From NCBI GenBank assembly GCA_947625305.1, contig CANQNW010000004.1, positions 62,001-126,000 on the forward strand: a stretch of DNA of 64,000 nucleotides, written 5' to 3'. The notes under the pieces are model-generated. The model had not been told where the DNA came from. It saw only the letters and a list, made by a program, of their open reading frames with translations, and did no database searches. This stretch comes from Candidatus Gastranaerophilales bacterium. GTDB taxonomy: Bacteria > Cyanobacteriota > Vampirovibrionia > Gastranaerophilales > Gastranaerophilaceae. Positions 26,855 to 41,514 of this stretch are shown here, piece by piece (within the stretch, counting starts at the first letter, position 1; each line of letters starts with the position of its first letter). The position numbers and the translations under genes are program-made.

Positions 26855-27316
26855 ATGCCGTTCAGATACAGATTACAAAAAATGCTGGACTTCAGAATAC
26901 GAAAGAAAGAAGAACAGCTTCAGGAAGTAATAAAAGCTAAAAATGAGGTAGACAGAATTCAAGGATTAATTGATGCAAATAATCAGGAAATAGCAGGTGT
27001 AATTTACACAATGAGAAACACCTCTGACTATAGACAAATGGATTTGTACGATAAATACTTAAAACATTTATATGTAAAAGGCGAAGAACTTGAAAAACAA
27101 AAACAAGAAGCTCTGCAGGCACTTGAAGTAGAAAAACAAAAGCTCGTTGAAAGAGAAAAAGAAGTAAAAGTCCTTGAAAAACATAAAGAAAGAGCATTAG
27201 AAACTTATAAAGAAGAAGAAAAACAAAAAGAAATAAAAGAATTATCTGAAGTAGCGGTTCAAAAATATTTTCAAAAAACAAAAGAAAAAAAAGAAGACGA
27301 AGGCGAAGATATTTAA
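26855..27316 (+). CDS. fliJ: Flagellar export protein FliJ
   Basis: Cytoplasmic coiled-coil stalk of the flagellar type III export ATPase. The 153-residue protein begins FRYRLQKMLDFRIRKKEEQL, matching FliJ, and is almost entirely charged coiled coil (about residues 15-145). No convincing Shine-Dalgarno is present. It is first in a three-gene flagellar group, 11 bases before the FliK-like gene. No other flagellar gene lies in the window. Confidence 0.85.
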   Translation: MPFRYRLQKMLDFRIRKKEEQLQEVIKAKNEVDRIQGLIDANNQEIAGVIYTMRNTSDYRQMDLYDKYLKHLYVKGEELEKQKQEALQALEVEKQKLVEREKEVKVLEKHKERALETYKEEEKQKEIKELSEVAVQKYFQKTKEKKEDEGEDI

Positions 27317-27327
27317 AAGGATACGAA

Positions 27328-27951
27328 ATGAAAGTAGAAACACAAATAAAACAAAAGATAGAAAAACAAGAAACTACAATTCCTCAAAGGGATGAAGAAA
27401 ATCAAATTTTAACCAATCTTAATGCTTTGCCGTTTTCTGATATTTTAAATCAAGAATTAAACGGAAATACGGAGATTTCAGACGATTCAAATTTTTTAAA
27501 TTCCGATTTTAATTATGATACTCTGCTAATGGATTTAAAAGATGCTTTATTTTTCATAAATCTGGCAAATGAAGGTCAATTTTCGGTTGAGCATGCGCAA
27601 AACGGTGAATTTAAAAGCCTCCTGCAGTTAGAAGTTGCACAAACCGAAGTAACACAAAAAACAGTTTCGGTTACAAATCAATTGACAGAACTAATAGAGA
27701 AAGCACAAAATACACAAAAGCCTGTCAGGATTACATTTGATAACAATGTTTCCGTGATTTTAAAAATAGATAAACACGGTAAACTTACGGCAGAGTTTAT
27801 TCCCGGTAATATTGAGGCGGAGAACTATTTAAAAAATAATATTGCCTCGTTAAAACAAAGATTTGACGAACAAAACCTGCCTTATAACGATTTATTATAC
27901 AGACAGAATAACAGACAAAACAGAAATAAAAACAAAAGAGGAGAACAATAA
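27328..27951 (+). CDS. Short FliK-like hook-length control protein
   Basis: The last 75 residues resemble the FliK C-terminal domain: KPVRITFDNNVSVILKIDKHGKLTAEFIP, then a helical LKNNIASLKQRFDEQNL and a basic tail. The N-terminal 120 residues are acidic and poorly structured in appearance. At 207 residues it is much shorter than typical FliK (often 400 or more), so the ruler region would be small. Position between fliJ and a hook/rod gene supports the call. Its stop overlaps the next start (TAATG). Confidence 0.7.
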   Translation: MKVETQIKQKIEKQETTIPQRDEENQILTNLNALPFSDILNQELNGNTEISDDSNFLNSDFNYDTLLMDLKDALFFINLANEGQFSVEHAQNGEFKSLLQLEVAQTEVTQKTVSVTNQLTELIEKAQNTQKPVRITFDNNVSVILKIDKHGKLTAEFIPGNIEAENYLKNNIASLKQRFDEQNLPYNDLLYRQNNRQNRNKNKRGEQ

Positions 27952-28787
27952 TGCGTGACGGTTTTATTACGGCTTTAAACACTCAAAAGACAACAAGGCT
28001 GTGGATAAACGACATAACAGAAAACCTTGTAAATGTTTATACCCCCGGCTACAGGGAAAAACAATTTACATTTAAAACTTTTCTTGACGGTTCAATGGCT
28101 AACGGTGAATTAAGAAATATAAGCCAGGGTAAATCATCACCCGGCACATCGGATGAAAATATATTTCTTGAAGGAAACGGCTATTTTGTACTAAGAAACG
28201 ACAAAGGAAGAATTGTTTATACTCGTCTGGGGGAGTTCAAATTTGACGGAGAAGGTGTATACAGAAGTCCTGACGGGCAAGCCGTTCAAGGTTATATATT
28301 AAATGATAAAGGTGAAATTATGAACGGGGCGAAGCCTGTTGATGCGGAATCTTTTGTAGATACAGCATTTGACGGAGGTGCCGCATCCGTTCCCACTACT
28401 AATATTAAATTATGGATTGACCCGTCTAACGGAAAATATCTCGGAAAATATGAAGAATTTGAATTTAAAGATGACGGTATATTATACGGAAAAGCAGATG
28501 GCGGAAAGGTTATGACGCCTTTATATAAGGTCGCTATCATAAATTTCCATAACCCTCAAAAACTGTTTCAGGTCGCTGACGGACAATTTATAGAAACGGA
28601 AGAATCCGGTAAACCCGTTGTCGGCAGAGGCGAAGTAAGAAGCGGATTAATTGAATTATCTAATGTTGATTTTGATGCAAATAGCGCATATTATAACCAA
28701 GCACAAATGCAATTAACTCTTGCTGATCAAATGGTTAAATCACATAAAACTCTATTACAAAATGCTATAGAGTTAATGAGCAACTAA
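27951..28787 (+). CDS. Flagellar hook/basal-body rod protein (FlgE/FlgF/FlgG family)
   Basis: Extracellular rod or hook subunit. The 278-residue protein begins with the helix of axial proteins (ALNTQKTTRLWINDITENLVNVYTPGYR), has the ENIFLEGNGYFVLRN and YTRLGEFKFDGEGVYRSPDGQAVQGY blocks near residues 66-110, and ends with SNVDFDANSAYYNQAQ plus an amphipathic C-terminal helix. The N-terminal consensus normally reads with N-x-A-N-x-x-T-x-G-F/Y; here it is ENLVNVYTPGY, a modest change. The size fits FlgF/FlgG more than most FlgE. Followed by a strong terminator. Confidence 0.85.
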   Translation: MRDGFITALNTQKTTRLWINDITENLVNVYTPGYREKQFTFKTFLDGSMANGELRNISQGKSSPGTSDENIFLEGNGYFVLRNDKGRIVYTRLGEFKFDGEGVYRSPDGQAVQGYILNDKGEIMNGAKPVDAESFVDTAFDGGAASVPTTNIKLWIDPSNGKYLGKYEEFEFKDDGILYGKADGGKVMTPLYKVAIINFHNPQKLFQVADGQFIETEESGKPVVGRGEVRSGLIELSNVDFDANSAYYNQAQMQLTLADQMVKSHKTLLQNAIELMSN

Positions 28788-28912: not shown

Positions 28913-29620
28913 ATGAAAATATCACCTATAAATTATTACATGCCTAATTTTAAGGCAGAAAAAATAAAGAAAGAAAAGCCTCAAACTTCAAATAATTCTC
29001 TGCAAACAATAAAGGAATTTCCTCAAGCCGTCAGTATAATGCCTGATTTCGGGATTGAAAGGTGCAGAAAAATTAAAACCGTTTTCCTTATTGATAAAAC
29101 TAACGGAGATATTATTTATGCAGACTTATTAAAGCATAAAAATTACCCTAAATATGAAGTCAGAGTAAAAGGAAAACTCGCAGGTTATATGAATATGAGT
29201 GATAACGGATACCTGCCCGAGTGTGATAATATCCCTGAAAATCTTAAAGAAGTTGGAATTCCCAAAATTACGGGACTAAGAACAATACTGGGTGATAAAT
29301 ACTCAGGTATAGGTTCAGCCCTTATAAATGAAGCAATTGAACACAGTAAAAAAATCAAGAAAAAAGGAGTAATTTGGCTGATGGCATCAGATGGTTACGA
29401 TAATTATGCTTCACAATACATGGCTAATGTAAATCCTGTTCCGTTTTATAAAAAATGCGGATTTATCTGCATAAAAAAAGATACAGAGAAAAAAGTAAAT
29501 TCAGCTTTAAAAAATAATATGCCCTTCTTACTTCCTGAAACTGTTAACATGCTGTTAACAGCTGAAAATGCCGAGAAATTTCAGGATAAGTACAATAAAA
29601 AATATTGCAAAGAATTTTAA
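28913..29620 (+). CDS. GNAT-type N-acetyltransferase-like protein with an F-K-A N-terminal tag
   Basis: The 235-residue protein has the acetyl-CoA loop DKYSGIGSALINEAIEHS near residues 127-144 and a late PVPFYKKCGF segment, both typical of GNAT enzymes. The substrate is unknown. The N-terminus reads MKISPINYYMPNFKAEKI, followed by a lysine-rich stretch, and is not a signal peptide. A similar start is found in the giant protein at 31045. It has an AGGAAG ribosome site and a 3' overlap of 4 bases with the convergent LUD gene. Confidence 0.72.
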   Translation: MKISPINYYMPNFKAEKIKKEKPQTSNNSLQTIKEFPQAVSIMPDFGIERCRKIKTVFLIDKTNGDIIYADLLKHKNYPKYEVRVKGKLAGYMNMSDNGYLPECDNIPENLKEVGIPKITGLRTILGDKYSGIGSALINEAIEHSKKIKKKGVIWLMASDGYDNYASQYMANVNPVPFYKKCGFICIKKDTEKKVNSALKNNMPFLLPETVNMLLTAENAEKFQDKYNKKYCKEF

Positions 29621-31044: not shown

Positions 31045-34000
31045 ATGAGAATAACAAGAATTAATCAAATACCCTGTAATTATACATTTAAAGGGGTTAG
31101 GCAGGATATTAACACAATAAAAGAACTTAAAAACGGAACTTCTCCCATTGGCGAAAACCAAAAATTAAATATATATACAGCACTTCAAAATATTGCATTA
31201 ACTCCTACCGAAACAAGTATTAAAGCATTATTAGATACTGCAAGGAACAGAGCATACGGCATTGACTGTTTCTCCGAATATTCAAAAAGTTTGAGCAATG
31301 ACAACATAATTGAAAGAAGAGAAAAACAAAATACAGATTGGGAAACTATATTAAATCAAACTTTAATAAGCGCAAATCAAGCACTTGAAAAAAATAACGG
31401 CGATAAAGATTTAATTGAGGAAGTTAATAAATATTTATCCACTCCCGTATATAAAGAATTAACCTCCGTCCAACGGGAAATATTGGAACTAAGAACAAAA
31501 TTAATTAATGCATTAAAAAGAGAATATAATAAAGAATTTCCTAATAAAACGACAGAAGAAAAAAAAGCCGAATTAAATGATTTAAATGACAGTTTTACCT
31601 ATTTTCTTTCTTCCTCTGAAACCACTTATGAAAGCAAAAAAGAATGCTTAAAAAAATTCCTCTATCTGTTAAGCGGTAAGTATAAAATAAATTCTGATTT
31701 AGAGGACAAAAAAATACAAATAATAAAAGAAATGCTGGCTGATATCTTAGTTAAGACACCTAAAAGTAAAGTCTTAACAACAAAAGGAATTGACCAAAGA
31801 CAATCAGGAATATGCGCAGCAATATCAATCTGCCGAAAACTTCTTGCTTATGAAGATAAAGAACGATATATGGATGTTGTACTGGATGAATTAAGCCAAA
31901 ATCCTTATATGGAGGTCTATGATATAACGGAACTCGACAGCGGGAAAAAAGTACAGTTAGAAAAACCTTTTATTGATTATAAAGAAGCTATTTCAAGAGG
32001 ATACAGAATTTTAGATGCTTCTGCACATATTTGGATGCAAAATGCACACGCAAGCGGAAACGGTACTTTGCAAACAGAGTGGTATAACGCATTTGACAGT
32101 ATTAATGACGGAATATTTGATGATACAAGCTGGTTTGGATATATTCCCGACAGATATGCCGAAAAAGACTTCTTAAAAGCAATAATACAGGAAAGTGCTT
32201 TCTTGGAAAAAGCTGAAAAGACTAACAGAAGAAAAAAAGAATTAAGAAATAAGCTATATCAAAACAACAAAAGTTTTCCTTTGAGAGATAAAACAAGCAC
32301 GGAATTACTAAACATTTTAAGACAAGTATTTCCTTCGTTTTCATCTTCTCAAATAAATGCACTTGAGAAAAATATAATTAAATATTATAACGGATACACT
32401 GAAAATAACGAAGAACAAGTACCTAAAAAACTGCCTAAAGAAGTACAAGAAAAACGGCTTAAAAATTATATTCAATCACAAGGCAGAGCAAATTCGCAAA
32501 TTCTTGATAATCAAATTGAAAAAATATTTGCATACACAAAAATGCTTTCGGATATTGAACAACAAGTTAAAGAGGCAAGAAGTTATAATACTCCTTCAGG
32601 TAAATTCAGATATTATCAAACTTTATTTAAAACCGCAAAAGCACATAGAAATGCAATAGAATCAGATATGGCAATTCCAAGCTATAAATTAAGATACGAA
32701 AAATTATTGGAATTACCTCCCATGGATATAAGACTTTCCGATTATTTAAATGACCTTACAAGTCAGATTGACGAAAATCATTCAGAAGAACTGAAAGAAG
32801 ATATTGAATTTATTAATAATATGCCCTCAACGATTGACTTCTTCTTAGATTTATTGTTCGGTGAGGATTTAAAAAGTTTATTGATATTAACTTATTCAAT
32901 GGCGGCTAATTCAATAAAAGAAGGAGATATTAATACACAAGATACAATAGCAAATATTGCACTTATTGATAATACGGAAGAAAACGTAATTGCGCATATT
33001 AATAACACTATTAAACAACTTGAAGAATCAGATTCTTCAGACACTGAACTGTTATGTGAAGCGGCAAGAACTTTAGGTTATTCTTCTCTTCTAAACTGTT
33101 TTAATGACACAATAAGTTCTTTCTACGAGGCAATGCAGCAAAATAACGGAATTAATGCCGAAACATATAACAAATTAATGACTGCATATGAAACCGAAGA
33201 CCTAAGTGAAATAATTAAAAATCTAAATGAAGATATCAATTATTTATCGGATAAATATAACGAAATTATATCAAAATGGTATTTTCCTTCTTCTATTTCA
33301 CTGATGTTAAAATTACAGGAGGAGGATAATGAAATCCTGACAAACTACGACCTTAATTATCTGTATGACGGGATAAAATCTAAAAAAGAAACCATACTGG
33401 AAAAAACAAAAGATATTAAAAATCCAAAAGAAAAACAAAAAGAAACAAATAAATTAATAACCTTTACCCCGAGAGAAGAAGAATTGTATTCAAAAATCGA
33501 ATCACAATTAACTCACATGAGAAAATATGCGAAACGAAATTATAAATTAATGAACAGCATATTAAAAGACGAAATGGAAGAGCAATACTCATATATAGGT
33601 AAATTAAACGGACAATATTGGGTAAGAGAAGAAGGTTCTACAGGGCTTTTAAGCAACGAGCAGTTAAGAATAATAGAACAAATGACGGGAAAATCCTACC
33701 ACATAGAAACGGATTTGGATAAAGCCTTAAAACAAATAAAAGAAGGAAAAGGCAGCGGAATATTAAGTTCCAGTATGGATGACACCGATTATGCCTTTCA
33801 TGCTCAATATATAACAGATGTCAGCCCCATAAAAATAAAAAATCCAAAAACCGGAGAAACGGAAGAAAAAGACATTTTATGGACGGATAACAGCTGGGGT
33901 GAAGCTGAAAAAGAATACTGGTGGAACAATGAAGATACGGGATTAGATTATACCGACTACGGTAGCGGATACGGCTGGCAAGATGGGTTTATTGTCGATG

Positions 34001-36849
34001 ACAGTTTTAAAATAGGATTGAGCGCATCTGATTTAAAATATGCAAAAGGAGTTGCAAAAAAATATAATGAATCCTTCGGACTTGTAAACGATATTATTTT
34101 ACCCGGCGTTCCGATAAACTCGCATGTTAAACTTATAGAAATGCTTAATGATATATTCGCAATTGAAAGACATACCCATGCCGGATATTTAGAGGCTTTG
34201 GATAAAGCAATAAGCGAGCACAATGAAAACGTTTCCCCTGATTTTCTTGAACAGATTGATAAACTTGTTTACCAAAAATCTGAAACAATTTTAAAGCGGA
34301 TAAAAAACGAAATAAAATCTCAAGAAGATTTCGATAAACTGCCCGAAAACGACCCTATAAAACTTATCTTAAAAAAATTATCCGTTTCAATAGGTGTATC
34401 AAATAATAAAGCCTGGGAACAGGAGGTCTATAACGCACAAACTAATGAAGATTTAGAAAATATAAAAAAAGATGTATTTAAAGGATACTCAAACCTTTTA
34501 AAACTTATAATAAATAAATCGGATATAATTATTGACCAAATTTTCAGGGTTATATCCGATGATATAGATAAAATTTGTGAAGATATTGAAAAGAATTATC
34601 AACTTAAATTATCAGAGGAACAAACAGATAAATTAAACAAAATAATTTTTGAACAAGAGGATGCCCAATCCAAATGGGACGGCTCATATGACGGTTTAAA
34701 GAAATATTTATTCAATATGGTGGATGAAACCTCTAAAGATGAAGTATTTAAAAATAATCCCTCTGCTGCAAAATACTATAATGAAGAAATGAAAAAGCTT
34801 ATAAATAAAAATCTTGAAGAAGAAGTTAAAATTAATACCTTCTCAAGCCCCGGATTTAGCGAATCGGAGTTTAAACATATTTTAGTTAATTTAATAGACA
34901 GATTTTACAATACTGAAAGTGATAATGAAGTACTTGAAAAAATCAAAGAACTTCAAAATTCTGACGGTAAATCAGTCCAAACCTTTTTAAATTCAATAAC
35001 GGAAGAAGATTTAGGACTTAAATATCCTTCTCCTTATGATTGCATAAGATTGTTAAAAGCTGAAAATAATTTTGTCGAAAGAAGATTAGATAAAATTATA
35101 ACAAGTGACATAATTTTGCAAAATATAAAAGTATCGGGTGAGGATGAACCCTCCACCGCTGATGAACTTTATAGATCCTTATATATAGCACTGGCTGATA
35201 TGGATATTCAAAGACACGTTAGGAACTTTAAAGCTGAAGCATTGCAAAAATATAAATTGCGTCAGGCATTCCCGAAACCTGCAGTCTTACAAGACGAAAA
35301 AATAAAATCCAATATTGAAACATTCCTAAATTTAGTAGATATGGATATAGAAAGTATTAGAATAAACAAAGACTTAAATAAACTGCTTGCCGCATATAAA
35401 AAATATAAAGATGATTTAGCCGATAACAGCATATATAATGCTTGGCTGGAAGGCAAAGATATTGCCTATGATGAAAACAGCGAAGATGAAATTAATGAAA
35501 TACTTGATTTTATGGAAGAAATCAACGCAATCATTAAAAATAACGAAACACAGCTTAAAAGATATATTAACCCCGATACTATAAAAGAATTTATGGATGT
35601 AATATACAGCCAAGGAGAAGAACCTGACACAAAAGCAATACAGGAAGCTCTTTTAAAAGTCGTTATTCCTTTTGAAAACTACCTGGAAACAGGCAGTATA
35701 GATTCATCCGCAGAAGGAGCAAAAGAAACTTTAACATCTTTAAAAGAAAATATGGCATCATATATAAACGGTTCCATTGAACTCAAATACAGAAACGGAG
35801 CATATCAGAGGTTAAAAAATTATATAAGAGAATATATGAAAGACTCTGAAAGTGAAAAAACAAAACAAGCGGAAGAAATCTTTACGAATTTTGCGATTTA
35901 CAGGCATATTACAAAAAATCCCGTATGCCTGCTTAATGAAGTTATAAAAGATATTAAATCGGGCGCAAATAAAAACCAGCAAAATGCGTTTAATTTAAAG
36001 AAACAATACCTTTTAATGGCTTTAAATACAGCAGAACAAACAAAAATACAGTACGACCTTGTTGAAAATCAGCATAACGGAATAAGTTCTAAATTTAAAG
36101 TTGTACTGCCTTACCATAATCTTTTAATGAAAGACGGGACACAAAAAAATCTATTAAGCCCCGAAGGTTTATCTTATTTAATTTACCAGCTTTCAAATGA
36201 AGCAGATAACTATGAAACTTTAAAGTTATTTCTTGACCAAACAGGATTATCCGAGGAGGCAATTAAATCATTGACGGAAGGTTTTGACCTGAATAAATCG
36301 ATAAAATATTTTGATAAAGCTTTAACTCAAATAGTAAAAGACTATAACGATATTGATTTTCTTTCTGAAAAAGTTGATAAATTTATAAATCAGGATGATC
36401 CTAATTATAGTTCAATTAATTCTGCTCTTAAAGCTTTTGTTGAATATATTATTAATGTCACCGAGCCAAGAAAAAATTCTAAAATTATAAAAAAATACCT
36501 AAAGACTATAAAAGATGCAAAAGTAGTAAAAGAAACTAATATTACGGATAACGATTTTATATTAAAACATGCTCTGTTACCTTTAACTGCACAGGCACTA
36601 AGCAGTCTGCAAAATGAAGTTAACCAAAGTTTTTACCGACTAAGGAGCAACATGGAAGTTATTGATAATCAGGCAAATTTAGCATCTGAAATCACGATAC
36701 CGGAACAAAGTAAAGCATTTAAAGATAAAGAAGAATATTTTAACAAGTATTTTAAATTCAAACAATATACAACGGCAAAATTTAATCAGTTTACAGCTGA
36801 AAAAATTAATTCAACTAATGAAAATAATTCTAACGAAGAAGAAAACTAA
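31045..36849 (+). CDS. Giant 1934-residue protein with a split papain-type (C1-like) triad
   Basis: No full-length family recognised. Residues 250-260 read DQRQSGICAAI, matching the papain and bleomycin-hydrolase nucleophile region: Gln251 (oxyanion hole) and Cys257 keep the papain Q-x5-C spacing. The other catalytic residues appear much later: His919 in YAFHAQYITDV and Asn949 in ILWTDNSWGEAEKEYW, the classic NSWG motif. Between them lie about 660 residues, mostly charged helices; another 985 residues of similar make-up follow. I infer a cysteine peptidase-like enzyme with a very large insertion and helical scaffold. There is no signal peptide or membrane segment. The N-terminus (MRITRINQIPCNYTFKG) resembles that of the GNAT protein at 28913. 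AAGGA precedes the ATG. Confidence 0.82.
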   Translation: MRITRINQIPCNYTFKGVRQDINTIKELKNGTSPIGENQKLNIYTALQNIALTPTETSIKALLDTARNRAYGIDCFSEYSKSLSNDNIIERREKQNTDWETILNQTLISANQALEKNNGDKDLIEEVNKYLSTPVYKELTSVQREILELRTKLINALKREYNKEFPNKTTEEKKAELNDLNDSFTYFLSSSETTYESKKECLKKFLYLLSGKYKINSDLEDKKIQIIKEMLADILVKTPKSKVLTTKGIDQRQSGICAAISICRKLLAYEDKERYMDVVLDELSQNPYMEVYDITELDSGKKVQLEKPFIDYKEAISRGYRILDASAHIWMQNAHASGNGTLQTEWYNAFDSINDGIFDDTSWFGYIPDRYAEKDFLKAIIQESAFLEKAEKTNRRKKELRNKLYQNNKSFPLRDKTSTELLNILRQVFPSFSSSQINALEKNIIKYYNGYTENNEEQVPKKLPKEVQEKRLKNYIQSQGRANSQILDNQIEKIFAYTKMLSDIEQQVKEARSYNTPSGKFRYYQTLFKTAKAHRNAIESDMAIPSYKLRYEKLLELPPMDIRLSDYLNDLTSQIDENHSEELKEDIEFINNMPSTIDFFLDLLFGEDLKSLLILTYSMAANSIKEGDINTQDTIANIALIDNTEENVIAHINNTIKQLEESDSSDTELLCEAARTLGYSSLLNCFNDTISSFYEAMQQNNGINAETYNKLMTAYETEDLSEIIKNLNEDINYLSDKYNEIISKWYFPSSISLMLKLQEEDNEILTNYDLNYLYDGIKSKKETILEKTKDIKNPKEKQKETNKLITFTPREEELYSKIESQLTHMRKYAKRNYKLMNSILKDEMEEQYSYIGKLNGQYWVREEGSTGLLSNEQLRIIEQMTGKSYHIETDLDKALKQIKEGKGSGILSSSMDDTDYAFHAQYITDVSPIKIKNPKTGETEEKDILWTDNSWGEAEKEYWWNNEDTGLDYTDYGSGYGWQDGFIVDDSFKIGLSASDLKYAKGVAKKYNESFGLVNDIILPGVPINSHVKLIEMLNDIFAIERHTHAGYLEALDKAISEHNENVSPDFLEQIDKLVYQKSETILKRIKNEIKSQEDFDKLPENDPIKLILKKLSVSIGVSNNKAWEQEVYNAQTNEDLENIKKDVFKGYSNLLKLIINKSDIIIDQIFRVISDDIDKICEDIEKNYQLKLSEEQTDKLNKIIFEQEDAQSKWDGSYDGLKKYLFNMVDETSKDEVFKNNPSAAKYYNEEMKKLINKNLEEEVKINTFSSPGFSESEFKHILVNLIDRFYNTESDNEVLEKIKELQNSDGKSVQTFLNSITEEDLGLKYPSPYDCIRLLKAENNFVERRLDKIITSDIILQNIKVSGEDEPSTADELYRSLYIALADMDIQRHVRNFKAEALQKYKLRQAFPKPAVLQDEKIKSNIETFLNLVDMDIESIRINKDLNKLLAAYKKYKDDLADNSIYNAWLEGKDIAYDENSEDEINEILDFMEEINAIIKNNETQLKRYINPDTIKEFMDVIYSQGEEPDTKAIQEALLKVVIPFENYLETGSIDSSAEGAKETLTSLKENMASYINGSIELKYRNGAYQRLKNYIREYMKDSESEKTKQAEEIFTNFAIYRHITKNPVCLLNEVIKDIKSGANKNQQNAFNLKKQYLLMALNTAEQTKIQYDLVENQHNGISSKFKVVLPYHNLLMKDGTQKNLLSPEGLSYLIYQLSNEADNYETLKLFLDQTGLSEEAIKSLTEGFDLNKSIKYFDKALTQIVKDYNDIDFLSEKVDKFINQDDPNYSSINSALKAFVEYIINVTEPRKNSKIIKKYLKTIKDAKVVKETNITDNDFILKHALLPLTAQALSSLQNEVNQSFYRLRSNMEVIDNQANLASEITIPEQSKAFKDKEEYFNKYFKFKQYTTAKFNQFTAEKINSTNENNSNEEEN

Positions 36850-36910: not shown

Positions 36911-37186
36911 ATGAAAAAGAAATTATCAATATTTTTCATATTAATTTTTTTATCAGGTGCAATACCGCCATGCTTTGCACTCAATGTAGGCACTTATAAG
37001 ACAGAAACGGAATACGGGCTATTAGACGGATTTAAAATTAATTGGAAAAGGAAGGATAAATCCCAGCCTTTTATAGAGCCCAGAGAATCAACTCCTCAAA
37101 AATATCAGGAAATTGAAATGCGCCAGTACCATGAAGACGAGTACGAGCGAACAAAATATATGTATGAAGGTAAAGCAATAATTTAA
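36911..37186 (+). CDS. Small secreted protein of unknown function
   Basis: A 91-residue protein with a clear signal peptide (KKK, hydrophobic 5-18, likely cut near CFA-L at residue 24). The remaining 67 residues are charged and tyrosine-rich (YHEDEYERTKYMYEG) without cysteine pairs or known motifs. It has a strong GGGAGGGAGGG ribosome region. It lies 61 bases after the giant protein and is followed by its own terminator. Possibly co-expressed with the giant gene, but there is no direct evidence of a link. Confidence 0.72.
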   Translation: MKKKLSIFFILIFLSGAIPPCFALNVGTYKTETEYGLLDGFKINWKRKDKSQPFIEPRESTPQKYQEIEMRQYHEDEYERTKYMYEGKAII

Positions 37187-37297: not shown

Positions 37298-39079
37298 TTA
37301 CAGTATGTTTGAAGTAATTGTAAAGTGGAATCTTGCAGTATCTCTGTCCGTGTTGTTAGCATAGTCAGGATATCTTCTGCCGATTGGGAAACCCCAATAC
37401 ATGTTAGCAGAAATATATTTAGTAAGTTTAACAATAATACCGGGACCGAAACTCATTAAGTATTGAGTATGGCTTGAGTCAACATCAGACCATTGAAATC
37501 TGTTACCAATCCAGCCGATATCATAGAAACCTGCAAGCTGTATACTGTCACTGATAAATTTATATTTTTCAGGTAATATAGCTCTGAATCCGGGGATTGG
37601 GAATCTGTATTCAAAGCTTGCATTCATACCGTAGTCACCAATGAAGAAACCTTCATCATAACCTCTAACCGATGCAATACCACCGATTTGCATAGCTTCT
37701 GAAGCCCAAAGATGTCTGTTTGCGTATTGACCGTTAACTTGTAATAACATCAACTGATTTTTAGGTAATACCTGCAATCTTGCAGCACTTGCATTAACTT
37801 TAACAAAGTTATTGCTTGACATGTTTCTTGCCTTATTATAATCGGATGCATCAATAGGAATACCGCCTGATACCGCTCCGTTAAATAACCATCTGCCGTA
37901 GAAGTCATCTTTAATATCAGTCAAACTGCCTCTTAAAACTCTTGATCTGTAATCACTTAAATAAGGTTGTAAGGCTACATATTCAAGACTTTTGGTAAAT
38001 GTTTCCGTGTTACGTAAATCTAAAGTGATATCGCCGTATAATCTGTAATCATCGCCTTTAGCTAATCTTCTTGATACACCAAGGAATACATCATGTGATT
38101 CGCCTCTTATGCCCAAAGTCTTTAATGCTTTACCAAGTCTTACATAAGAATAAGAATAACCGATATTTAATCTTGTATCATTTTTAGCTATCGGAACAGA
38201 ATAAATACCGCCAGCGCCAAATGATCTTTCAGATAATGCAACAGTACCCATTAAAGTATCACCGTGTCCTGTAACATCATGCAACCCTGCGTATAAAACA
38301 CCTCTTTGAGTACCGATTGATTCTCTTCCCTGATTATCGTATCTTAAGTCGAAGTTAAGAGGAAATCTGTCTTTAACATCCAAAGTAACATCTGAAAATT
38401 CTTCTGATTCTTCGTTATCTGCAAAAGATACGGAACCTTTCATATATTCTTCCGTTGTCATTTCCGTCAAGGCATTTCTTACATCTTTAACATTTAAAAC
38501 TTTATTAGGCTGAATATTATTATCATCTAAGTAATGTTTATTAAGGTAAGAAGATTTTTCCCATTTACCGGGGTTAATTTGAACGTTACCGTATTTACCT
38601 TCTAAAATTTTAATTTCAATTTCGCCGTTTTCTACTTTTTGAGGAGGAAGGTAAGCTATTGTTGAAACATAACCTTTTCCCTGATAGTAGTCGGTAATTT
38701 CGTTAGCTGACATAATAAGGTCATTAATAGTAACCTCCTGACCGATTTTAAAGTCAACTAATCTCATTAATACATAAGTCGGGAATACGGTATTACCCGT
38801 AATATTAATTTTCTTTAATTTAAATGCAACTTGTTCGGTATTAAGCAAATCCATTTTCTTTTGGATATCCGCTTCTATAACAGCCGGATCAGTTTCTTTT
38901 ATAGCTTTTTCTTTAGCTTCATATTCTCTTTGCTGAATGAAGTTACTGTTATCAATCAAACCGGGATCATATCCGCCGATAGTAGATTGGTTTACATTTA
39001 CGGGAATATCGGCAAAAGCACTTATTCCCAACATTAAAGCTGCACATAACAGTGATGTTTTAAATAATGTTTTTTTCAT
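37298..39079 (-). CDS. TpsB-family outer-membrane transporter (ShlB/FhaC/HecB)
   Basis: Outer-membrane beta-barrel that exports a TpsA partner in two-partner secretion. A signal peptide is present (KKTLFKTSLLCAALMLG...SAFA). The POTRA region spans about residues 85-240 (FKLKKINITGNTVFPTYVL; YYQGKGYVSTIAYLPPQ). The barrel follows, with the plug/loop motif VRGYDEGF near residue 480 and alternating beta strands to the end. I use the ATG at 39079 with a GCGGA ribosome site rather than an upstream ATG at 39100. The probable substrate gene, tpsA, lies divergently 470 bases away. Confidence 0.93.
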   Translation of the reverse strand: MKKTLFKTSLLCAALMLGISAFADIPVNVNQSTIGGYDPGLIDNSNFIQQREYEAKEKAIKETDPAVIEADIQKKMDLLNTEQVAFKLKKINITGNTVFPTYVLMRLVDFKIGQEVTINDLIMSANEITDYYQGKGYVSTIAYLPPQKVENGEIEIKILEGKYGNVQINPGKWEKSSYLNKHYLDDNNIQPNKVLNVKDVRNALTEMTTEEYMKGSVSFADNEESEEFSDVTLDVKDRFPLNFDLRYDNQGRESIGTQRGVLYAGLHDVTGHGDTLMGTVALSERSFGAGGIYSVPIAKNDTRLNIGYSYSYVRLGKALKTLGIRGESHDVFLGVSRRLAKGDDYRLYGDITLDLRNTETFTKSLEYVALQPYLSDYRSRVLRGSLTDIKDDFYGRWLFNGAVSGGIPIDASDYNKARNMSSNNFVKVNASAARLQVLPKNQLMLLQVNGQYANRHLWASEAMQIGGIASVRGYDEGFFIGDYGMNASFEYRFPIPGFRAILPEKYKFISDSIQLAGFYDIGWIGNRFQWSDVDSSHTQYLMSFGPGIIVKLTKYISANMYWGFPIGRRYPDYANNTDRDTARFHFTITSNIL

Positions 39080-39549
39080 TGTTCCGCTCTCTATATACAT
39101 TGTACTTATAATTATATTTTATATGATACTATAGAAAAAATAAAATATTATATTAACTTATTTAATATTATACTATCTTTCCTAAGGAAAACATAATTCA
39201 AACATATGAAAAATAAACATAATATAATTTGCGGGTATAACAAGTAATTCATAACATATCTTTACAATTATGTTTTTATTTAAAATTTTTATTAAAATTG
39301 ATATAAAACAGTATTAAATAAGTATATATCAAATTGTAACGAATTCTTAACAAAAACGGTTAAAAAAGTAAATTTCCAACATTTAAAATTTTTATATAGT
39401 ATATATAGAATGTATTTATTTTAACGAGGAAATAAAATTCAAAACAATTCGTAACAAAGATTATTAAAAATAGCAATTTTTTTTTTCAGGATATTTAGAA
39501 TTAATACAAACTATAAAAAAGATTATTATTTAACATAAAGGAAGAAAAT
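39080..39549. other. AT-rich divergent intergenic region between tpsB and tpsA
   Basis: This 470-base gap contains no plausible gene on either strand. It is very AT-rich, with long A and T tracts. On the tpsB side a TATAAT sits on the minus strand at 39116-39111. On the tpsA side the ATG has an AAAGGAAG ribosome site. The sequence GTAACGAATT near 39336 recurs imperfectly inverted as AATTCGTAAC near 39445, possibly a regulator site. I see no hairpin with GC content. Confidence 0.5.
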
Positions 39550-41514
39550 ATGAAAAAATTATTAAGTTCAACAATCGCAATCGGTATTTTAGCAGTCACT
39601 TCAGCTGCTCCGGCATTTGCGGCTATTGATGCAAACACAATGCCTCAATTTAATCATGGTACAAACATGGATGTTACTACCAACGGAACAAATATGAATG
39701 TTAAAAACACAACAAATGCAACAGGCGGAGTTGCAGAAGGTTATTGGAACAGTTTCAATGTTGGTTCTAACGGGCATGTTAATTTTGAATTTACAGGTTA
39801 CAACCAAACAACTCTAAACCATGTAGGTCAAGCAGGCGGCATGTCTCAAATATATGGAAGTATTACAAAATCCTCCAGCTGTGCAGATTGCAATTTTGCA
39901 GGAACAGGTAAAGTATTTTTACTTAACCCAAACGGTGTATTATTCGGAGACGGTGCAAATGTTAACTTAAATTCATTAACAGTTGCAGCATCAGAAGGAA
40001 AATGGGATGCCGCTAAAAACCAATTAGTACTTGATAAACCTTCCGGTAATATTTATGTATTAGATGGTGCTAAAATTTATGGCGACCAGGCAATTAACTT
40101 ATTTGCAAAAAATGTTGATTTATATAAAGGTTCTCAACTTTCTACAAACATCGGTAAAAACTTTAATGATCCAAACGGTAACAATGCAGATGCAATGGGT
40201 AAAGTTAAAATTGTTACAGGCGACGGTGTTACATTCAGTTTCTATGATCAAGGTGCTGTAAATGATATTGCAGCTCATACATCATCAAACGATAAAATGC
40301 ATATCGGCATCAACGGTGAAATCACTTCAGGTAACATTGATGTAAGAAATTATTCAAAACATGAAGACAGTGTTTTATCAGTTAACGGAGCAACATTAAA
40401 AGCAGTAAAAGCTGAACACGGTAATGACGGTAACATTTGGTTAACAGCTTCAAATAAAGTTGTTGTTGACAAGTCAAATTTAACAACCGAAAGAGCTAAT
40501 GGTGCTAAAGCAGAAGATGCAAATATCAGAATTTTAGCAGGCAAAAAAGTTTCAGTAGGAACTTCTGATTTAAAAGCAGCAGGTGATGTAAAAATCACTT
40601 CACAAAAAGATGATATCGTTGTTGACGGTTCTAAACTTACTGCAGGTAACGATGTTTCTATAGAAGCAGCAGGAAAAGCTAATATTCAACAACAATACAG
40701 AGGTAAATCTACTGTTACGGCAGGCAAAAATGTTAATATAAAAGGCGGAGATGTATTATTCTCAGGTGCAACAGTTAAAGCATCAGGCGACATCAACGCA
40801 GAAGCCACATCAGGTGATGTAGTTGCTCAAAACTCTTCATCAATGGAAACAAACGGTAAAATTACTTTAAAAGCAGCAAAGAATGTTACAGGTACTCTTG
40901 ATGTTAAAAACTCTCAAACAAACATTTATGCAGGAAATGATATTAATGTTAACTTAGCAAATGTAGGAGTTAGAGAAAAGGGCTTAGTTGCTGAAGCTGA
41001 CAAAAATGTAACAATCACTACAGACGGAACATTATCAGTATCAAGATTAGTTGCTAAAAATGGTGATATGACAATCAACGCAGACAAAGTTATCGCAGGT
41101 CTTCCTTATACACAAGAAGCTAAAATCCCCGGTGATGACAGCGAAAGATCTTACATCTATGTAGCTAACGGTAAATTTACTTCAAATACAAAATCTGACA
41201 GCTATGAAGTTACAGCATCCGATACTCCTATCAACGATGGCAGAGATAACTTAAGACATCACATCCAATATGGTAACGGTCAAGAAAAAATCTTATTAAT
41301 CAACCCAAGACCGGCTCAAACAACACCTTCTATCGATCCGGCTCAAACAAGAGTAAGTGTTAATGATGACCAAGCTGCAATGTTAAACAAAATGCCAAGA
41401 CAACCTGAATCAATCAAAGTTAACAACAACATTACAAATAACAAAACAGCTTTAGTAGATGTATTCGCAGCAGCTAGTCAAATCGAAATCGTTGAAGATG
41501 ACGAAGAAGAATAA
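39550..41514 (+). CDS. TpsA-type secreted exoprotein (filamentous haemagglutinin N-terminal domain)
   Basis: Predicted cargo of the adjacent TpsB. A signal peptide (residues 1-24, APAFA) is followed by the TPS secretion domain, with a gly/asn-rich region and VFLLNPNGVLFGDGA (NPNG at 126-129). From about residue 250 to 540 it carries repeated beta-helix-like segments (A-G-x-D-V-x-I-x-S/A). The C-terminus is a short disordered tail ending in EDDEEE. At 654 residues it is small for a TpsA. A Cys111-x-x-Cys114 pair sits just before the NPNG strand. Probably a surface-exposed or released adhesin-like fibre. Confidence 0.92.
   Translation: MKKLLSSTIAIGILAVTSAAPAFAAIDANTMPQFNHGTNMDVTTNGTNMNVKNTTNATGGVAEGYWNSFNVGSNGHVNFEFTGYNQTTLNHVGQAGGMSQIYGSITKSSSCADCNFAGTGKVFLLNPNGVLFGDGANVNLNSLTVAASEGKWDAAKNQLVLDKPSGNIYVLDGAKIYGDQAINLFAKNVDLYKGSQLSTNIGKNFNDPNGNNADAMGKVKIVTGDGVTFSFYDQGAVNDIAAHTSSNDKMHIGINGEITSGNIDVRNYSKHEDSVLSVNGATLKAVKAEHGNDGNIWLTASNKVVVDKSNLTTERANGAKAEDANIRILAGKKVSVGTSDLKAAGDVKITSQKDDIVVDGSKLTAGNDVSIEAAGKANIQQQYRGKSTVTAGKNVNIKGGDVLFSGATVKASGDINAEATSGDVVAQNSSSMETNGKITLKAAKNVTGTLDVKNSQTNIYAGNDINVNLANVGVREKGLVAEADKNVTITTDGTLSVSRLVAKNGDMTINADKVIAGLPYTQEAKIPGDDSERSYIYVANGKFTSNTKSDSYEVTASDTPINDGRDNLRHHIQYGNGQEKILLINPRPAQTTPSIDPAQTRVSVNDDQAAMLNKMPRQPESIKVNNNITNNKTALVDVFAAASQIEIVEDDEEE

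What the first reader, a model, noticed from the sequence alone, without database searches (positions are those of the whole stretch)
31045..36849. Giant protein with a papain-like Cys-His-Asn triad split by about 660 residues
Seen: DQRQSGICAAI with Gln251 and Cys257 at the papain Q-x5-C spacing, then YAFHAQYI (His919) and ILWTDNSWG (Asn949). Known: papain and bleomycin-hydrolase families use Gln, Cys, His and Asn in this order, with the last in an N-S-W-G motif; the Cys-to-His gap is about 130 residues in papain and, as I recall, about 290 in bleomycin hydrolase. Inference: a C1B-like peptidase fold has received a huge helical insertion and a further 985-residue tail, making an unusual large enzyme or toxin-like machine without a signal peptide. 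I know no described family with this build.
Basis: partly seen in the sequence, partly recalled or inferred. Interest (0 to 1): 0.82.

Follow-up and report, generated by a model that had tools for sequence, protein, structure and literature searches.

The report
Giant split papain-like gut bacterial protease
Gut bacteria related to cyanobacteria carry one copy of a previously undescribed, nearly 2000-residue protein in which a papain-like protein-cutting enzyme is split in two by a large block of helices; it is probably a new family of proteases whose target and place of action are unknown.

Summary
The ORF at 31045-36849 (1934 aa, Candidatus Gastranaerophilales) has relatives in 142 of 383 genomes of its family, normally one gene per genome. 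In a 65-member alignment (down to about 23% identity) the only invariant Gln, Cys, His, Asn and Trp of the whole protein are Q251, C257, H919, N949 and W951. A confident AlphaFold model of residues 1-1150 (pLDDT 87.5, pTM 0.80) matches papain-fold cysteine proteases across the gap: calpain-1 core, Z 11.2, 215 residues, model 215-1021; papain-like CDI toxins, 130 residues at 2.6-2.7 A, model 242-1021. All 50 listed matches are papain-fold enzymes. So one catalytic domain (about 242-365 plus 870-1022) is interrupted between its lobes by about 480 helical residues, and followed by about 900 helical residues without recognisable fold. No sequence profile (Pfam, NCBIfam, PDB) recognises any part; a bleomycin-hydrolase (C1B) assignment is not supported. 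Best reading: a new family of papain-fold proteases, vertically inherited within the Gastranaerophilaceae. Substrate, location and the toxin idea are untested. The N-terminus carries an F-K-G/S motif resembling that of other proteins in this genome, possibly a sorting signal.

The parts
31045..36849 (+). ORF of the giant papain-fold protein, 1934 aa
   Evidence: open in nearly all relatives
31045..31128 (+). N-terminal tail with the conserved F-[KGT]-[GS]-x-R-x-D motif (F15, R19, D21); residues 1-15 disordered in the model
31096..31749 (+). N-terminal helical region, residues about 18-235
   Evidence: AlphaFold model
31768..32139 (+). papain-fold L-lobe, residues about 242-365 (boundaries approximate)
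31795..31797 (+). Q251, predicted oxyanion-hole glutamine
   Evidence: only invariant Gln
31813..31815 (+). C257, predicted nucleophile
   Evidence: only invariant Cys; falls on the papain Cys in a weak profile-profile alignment
32161..33609 (+). all-helical insertion between the two lobes, residues about 373-855; the stretch 372-865 is 308-309 residues in the shortest relatives and 470-596 in the others
33652..34110 (+). papain-fold R-lobe (beta-rich), residues about 870-1022
33799..33801 (+). H919, predicted general base
   Evidence: only invariant His
33889..33891 (+). N949 of D-N-[ST]-W-G, predicted His-orienting residue; W951 follows
   Evidence: only invariant Asn; falls on NSWG/NPW of C1 and C2 profiles
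34120..36828 (+). C-terminal all-helical region, residues about 1026-1928, no recognised fold

Best explanation
The gene encodes a papain-fold cysteine protease of a new family. Cys257 (nucleophile), His919 (base), Asn949 (His-orienting) and Gln251 (oxyanion hole) form one active site at the cleft between an L-lobe (about 242-365) and an R-lobe (about 870-1022). A helical domain of about 480 residues is inserted between the lobes, and helical regions of about 220 and 900 residues flank the enzyme. Shown: sequence, conservation, predicted fold. Inferred: that it hydrolyses peptide bonds, that the insert and tail select or hold a specific protein substrate (or shut the cleft until triggered), and that it works as a soluble protein, either in the cytosol or exported without a Sec signal.
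For: The sole invariant Q, C, H, N and W in 65 relatives are the predicted catalytic set. Confident model (pLDDT 87.5, pTM 0.80). Foldseek top match falcipain-2, prob 0.99. VIA-align: calpain-1 core 1kxr Z 11.2, rmsd 4.1, 215 aligned, model 215-1021; staphopain 1cv8 Z 10.6, rmsd 3.5, 149 of 173; 9l5u Z 9.2, rmsd 2.6, 130 of 138; every listed row is a papain-fold enzyme. Weak profile-profile local alignments place C257 on the papain Cys and N949 on the NSWG/NPW motifs. The gene is kept in 142 of 383 genomes, one per genome, with a genus-concordant tree, so it is under selection. The insert varies in length while the catalytic residues never change.
Against: No sequence profile of C1, C1B or C2 peptidases is significant for either half. 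The Trp that usually follows the papain Cys is Ala here. Foldseek E-values for the 1150-residue model are weak (0.06) although the probability is high. Activity is untested.
Confidence: 0.77

Rival explanations
1. Papain-fold enzyme that is not a general peptidase: an isopeptidase, deamidase, transglutaminase or other acyl-transfer enzyme using the same Cys-His-Asn site.
For: Papain-fold relatives with such chemistry are among the structural matches: UfSP and ZUFSP isopeptidases, phytochelatin synthase Alr0975, papain-like CDI toxins. Papain-like bacterial deubiquitinases with helical insertions are described (PMC7690952, search hit only).
Against: The Gln-Cys-His-Asn set with N-[ST]-W-G is that of C1-type peptidases (established knowledge); no conserved feature here points to another substrate.
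Confidence: 0.2
2. An exported effector: the N-terminal F-K-G/S motif directs the giant protein out of the cell, possibly through the filament-less flagellar export apparatus, to act on a host or neighbour. (This concerns location and is compatible with the best explanation.)
For: F15 and R19 are invariant in the 59-member alignment; a similar N-terminal motif is over-represented in other proteins of the genome in an independent sample (7 of 397 against 0.31 expected). FlhA is found in 382 of 383 family genomes; G000 has FlhA, FliI, FliH and FliF but no flagellin. FliJ, FliK and FlgE-like genes lie 2-4 kb upstream.
Against: The link between motif and export is only a guess; a motif-bearing GH77 glucanotransferase (L080) looks cytosolic. 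The flagellar genes are not next to the giant gene in other genera. Filament loss in a related genome has been explained as genome reduction (PMC3787301).
Confidence: 0.25
3. Degenerate papain fold, enzymatically dead, kept as a binding scaffold.
For: Sequence has diverged beyond profile recognition.
Against: Catalytic positions are the most strictly conserved of the protein; dead relatives normally lose them.
Confidence: 0.05
4. Chance resemblance of motifs in an unrelated helical protein.
For: No profile hit.
Confidence: 0.02

Closest known systems
Calpain protease core (peptidase family C2)
   Same: Best-scoring fold match (Z 11.2, 215 residues, spanning the insertion); order Gln, Cys, His, Asn.
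   Different: Asn-Ser/Thr-Trp-Gly instead of Asn-Pro-Trp; no PF00648 match; about 480 helical residues between lobes; no calpain accessory domains recognised.
Papain family C1A (staphopain, falcipain, cathepsins)
   Same: Fold (staphopain Z 10.6, tied with calpain; falcipain Foldseek prob 0.99); Gln-x5-Cys, His, Asn-Ser-Trp-Gly.
   Different: Cys followed by Ala, not Trp; no PF00112 match; C-H gap 478-765 instead of about 130.
Bleomycin hydrolase family C1B (PF03051)
   Same: D-Q-x-x-S-G-x-C and D/E-N-S-W-G-E look alike by eye.
   Different: No PF03051 match in this genome; profile-profile alignment places only the NSWG motif.
Papain-like CDI toxin domains (8ssm, 9l5u)
   Same: Compact papain-like core, 130 residues at 2.6-2.7 A.
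   Different: Those are small C-terminal toxin domains of CdiA-type proteins; this one is internal, split, and no CdiA parts were recognised in it.
Giant effectors with a papain-like domain (Efa1/LifA type, recalled)
   Same: Very large protein with a cysteine protease domain in a host-associated bacterium (from memory, not tested).
   Different: No other enzymatic domain or sequence match was seen here.

Membership tests
Papain-like fold (clan CA) | Two-lobed papain fold | tested here: met
   confident model; all listed structural rows are papain-fold enzymes, Z up to 11.2
Papain-like fold (clan CA) | Gln, Cys, His, Asn in this order, conserved | tested here: met
   100% in 65 relatives
Papain-like fold (clan CA) | Triad atoms within hydrogen-bond distance | not testable with these tools
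   model coordinates not available; only implied by alignment over 130 of 138 residues at 2.6 A
Peptidase C1A (PF00112) | Sequence profile match above cut-off | tested here: not met
   none for any of 50 members, both halves; none in G000
Peptidase C1A (PF00112) | Trp directly after the catalytic Cys | tested here: not met
   A258; Ala in 92% of members
Peptidase C1B (PF03051) | Sequence profile match above cut-off | tested here: not met
   no PF03051 match in G000
Peptidase C1B (PF03051) | C-terminal arm reaching the active site, hexameric ring | not testable with these tools
   the chain continues for about 900 residues after the R-lobe; assembly unknown
Peptidase C2 calpain (PF00648) | Sequence profile match above cut-off | tested here: not met
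   none in G000
Peptidase C2 calpain (PF00648) | Calpain core fold | tested here: inconclusive
   best Z 11.2 but tied with staphopain 10.6
Toxin or injected effector | Export and effect on a target cell | not tested

The most novel reading that the evidence does not exclude
A new family of giant proteases that gut Melainabacteria export by a Sec-independent route marked by an N-terminal F-K-G/S signal, using a flagellar export apparatus that has lost its filament, to process a host or microbial protein; the split papain domain with its inserted helical gate would be a new way of building a regulated protease.
Probability: 0.15. Interest if true: 0.88.

Novelty: new variant of a known kind. 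Interest (0 to 1): 0.62.

Why it matters
It adds an apparently undescribed, lineage-restricted family to the papain-fold proteases, with an unusual build: two lobes of one active site separated by a helical domain as large as a typical enzyme. It is a very large, single-copy gene of a common but barely cultured group of animal gut bacteria, so its target could reveal how these bacteria interact with their surroundings. The catalytic residues are now precise enough for a direct C257A test.

Tried and rejected
Sequence searches of the whole protein and of both catalytic halves against Pfam, NCBIfam, PHROGs, PADLOC and PDB gave nothing meaningful. A whole-profile PDB search returned only calmodulin and designed helical bundles, judged a composition effect of the helical insert. 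Profile-profile comparison with C1A, C1B and C2 alignments built here was not significant: E 0.02-0.2 against 0.04-0.8 for column shuffles, although the best local pieces fell on the catalytic motifs in four of six comparisons. A mobile origin was rejected: no match in viral contigs, phages or plasmids, and a genus-concordant tree. A conserved partner gene or operon was not found across genera. The C-terminal half has no convincing fold match (best Z 8.3 on a helical stretch, within the range expected for helical bundles). The viral structure library gave only weak long-helix matches. Tandem repeats do not explain the length. Correlation with flagellar genes could not be used, since FlhA is in nearly all genomes.

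Full report
What is there. The ORF at 31045-36849 (+) encodes 1934 residues. The window lies in a 1.97-Mb draft genome; related records are named Candidatus Gastranaerophilales.

Is it a real family? A protein search over 383 genomes of the same family found the gene in 142, in 22 of 41 genera, including 41 genomes of its own genus, normally one locus per genome. A profile search over 335 genomes of the class found it outside the family only once, in a sister family of the same order. It was not found in viral contigs, phages or plasmids. The gene tree follows the genera: each genus with several members is one clade, apart from g26 with g31 nested. This is vertical inheritance with losses. The neighbourhood is conserved only within the own genus and its nearest genera.

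Conservation. In 65 aligned relatives 35 of 1934 positions are invariant. Among 83 Gln, 10 Cys, 18 His, 162 Asn and 14 Trp, exactly one of each is invariant: Q251, C257, H919, N949 and W951. Cys-His spacing ranges from 478 to 765 while His-Asn spacing stays between 20 and 33. Three relatives of 1369-1388 residues have an insert of only 308-309 residues, so the insert is modular.

Structure. AlphaFold2 with 59 family sequences gives residues 1-1150 at mean pLDDT 87.5 and pTM 0.80. Helices fill 18-235; a mixed region 242-365 includes the helix that starts at C257; helices fill 373-855; a beta-rich region covers 870-1022 and carries H919 and N949. Foldseek against the PDB places falcipain-2 first with probability 0.99. 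The second look by VIA-align lists only papain-fold enzymes: calpain-1 core (1kxr, Z 11.2, rmsd 4.1, 215 residues), staphopain (1cv8, Z 10.6, 149 of 173), papain-like CDI toxins (9l5u, Z 9.2, rmsd 2.6, 130 of 138), cathepsins, C39 and phytochelatin synthase. The aligned ranges run from about 215-242 to about 1021, so the two sides of the insert form one domain. Coordinates could not be read out, so the triad geometry is implied and not measured.

What it belongs to. The fold and residues put it with papain-fold cysteine peptidases. No curated profile, PDB sequence or profile-profile comparison makes it a member of C1A, C1B or C2. Calpain and staphopain are tied structurally. I therefore treat it as a new family of the papain-like fold and not as a C1B enzyme.

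How it probably works. Shown: predicted fold and conserved site. Inferred from established papain chemistry: C257 attacks a carbonyl, Q251 stabilises the oxyanion, H919 is the base, N949 orients it. Inferred from position: the insert leaves the catalytic domain between its two lobes, where additions to the papain fold can limit substrate access (PMC10380794 says this of insertions in the papain family). Together with the 900-residue helical tail this suggests a selective or gated protease for a particular protein. The C-terminal model (pLDDT 84.6, pTM 0.73) is all but wholly helical with no convincing match.

Where it works. There is no signal-peptide-like or membrane segment (maximum 19-residue hydropathy 1.3). 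The N-terminus is disordered and carries F-[KGT]-[GS]-x-R-x-D in nearly all members. Similar N-termini (M-[KRNQ]-[IV]...[NSTV]-F-[KGSQR]-[GASKMR]) are over-represented in this genome: 7 of 459 ORFs against 0.45 expected in the sample where I noticed it, and 7 of 397 against 0.31 in an independent sample, of which at least one is a plain false positive. The genome also has a flagellar export apparatus without flagellin; loss of the filament in a related genome was reported as genome reduction (PMC3787301). Linking motif and apparatus is a guess.

Literature. Full-text searches found no paper that describes this protein or an effector system in Gastranaerophilales; the library holds only open-licence papers.

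Verdict. The finding is real, the papain reading is well supported by structure prediction and conservation, the subfamily claim is not, and the biological role is open.

Noticed in passing
window 31045-31128 and 28913-28975; L080:6188-8005, L082:17387-17818, L086:6672-7688, L127:2309-2983, L128:4127-5278, L212:10843-13653: A short N-terminal motif, M-[KRNQ]-[IV]...[NST]-F-[KGS]-[GASMR], recurs on otherwise unrelated proteins of this genome (GNAT, GH77, several unknowns) well above expectation; possible sorting signal, not found described.
   Followed up: partly
L081:15212-19450, L207:1-5490, window 26855-28787: Flagellar export and basal-body genes (FlhA, FliI, FliH, FliF, FlgE/G-like, FliJ, FliK) without flagellin; FlhA is in 382 of 383 family genomes, which suggests it may be kept for something other than swimming in many of them.
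   Followed up: partly
L093:6621-8084: A 487-aa protein matching only the second half of FlhA (profile 321-652), apparently its cytoplasmic domain without the membrane part; more than one FlhA match occurs in most family genomes.
   Followed up: no
L162, L163, L164, L165: Other Gastranaerophilaceae genomes carry more ordinary calpain-like (PF00648) proteins with Q-x4-D-C-[WF] and N-P-W, distinct from the giant.
   Followed up: no
window 36911-37186: Small 91-aa protein with a signal-peptide-like start just downstream of the giant gene, kept in 7 sampled loci of the own and neighbouring genera.
   Followed up: no
window 37298-41514: Two-partner secretion pair (TpsB/ShlB-type transporter and TPS-domain protein) next to the giant gene in the own genus; TpsB also lies near it in L038 and L039, not in most other genera.
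   Followed up: partly
L055, L056, L057: Short forms of the giant (1369-1388 aa) with a smaller insert and shorter tail, useful for structure work.
   Followed up: partly
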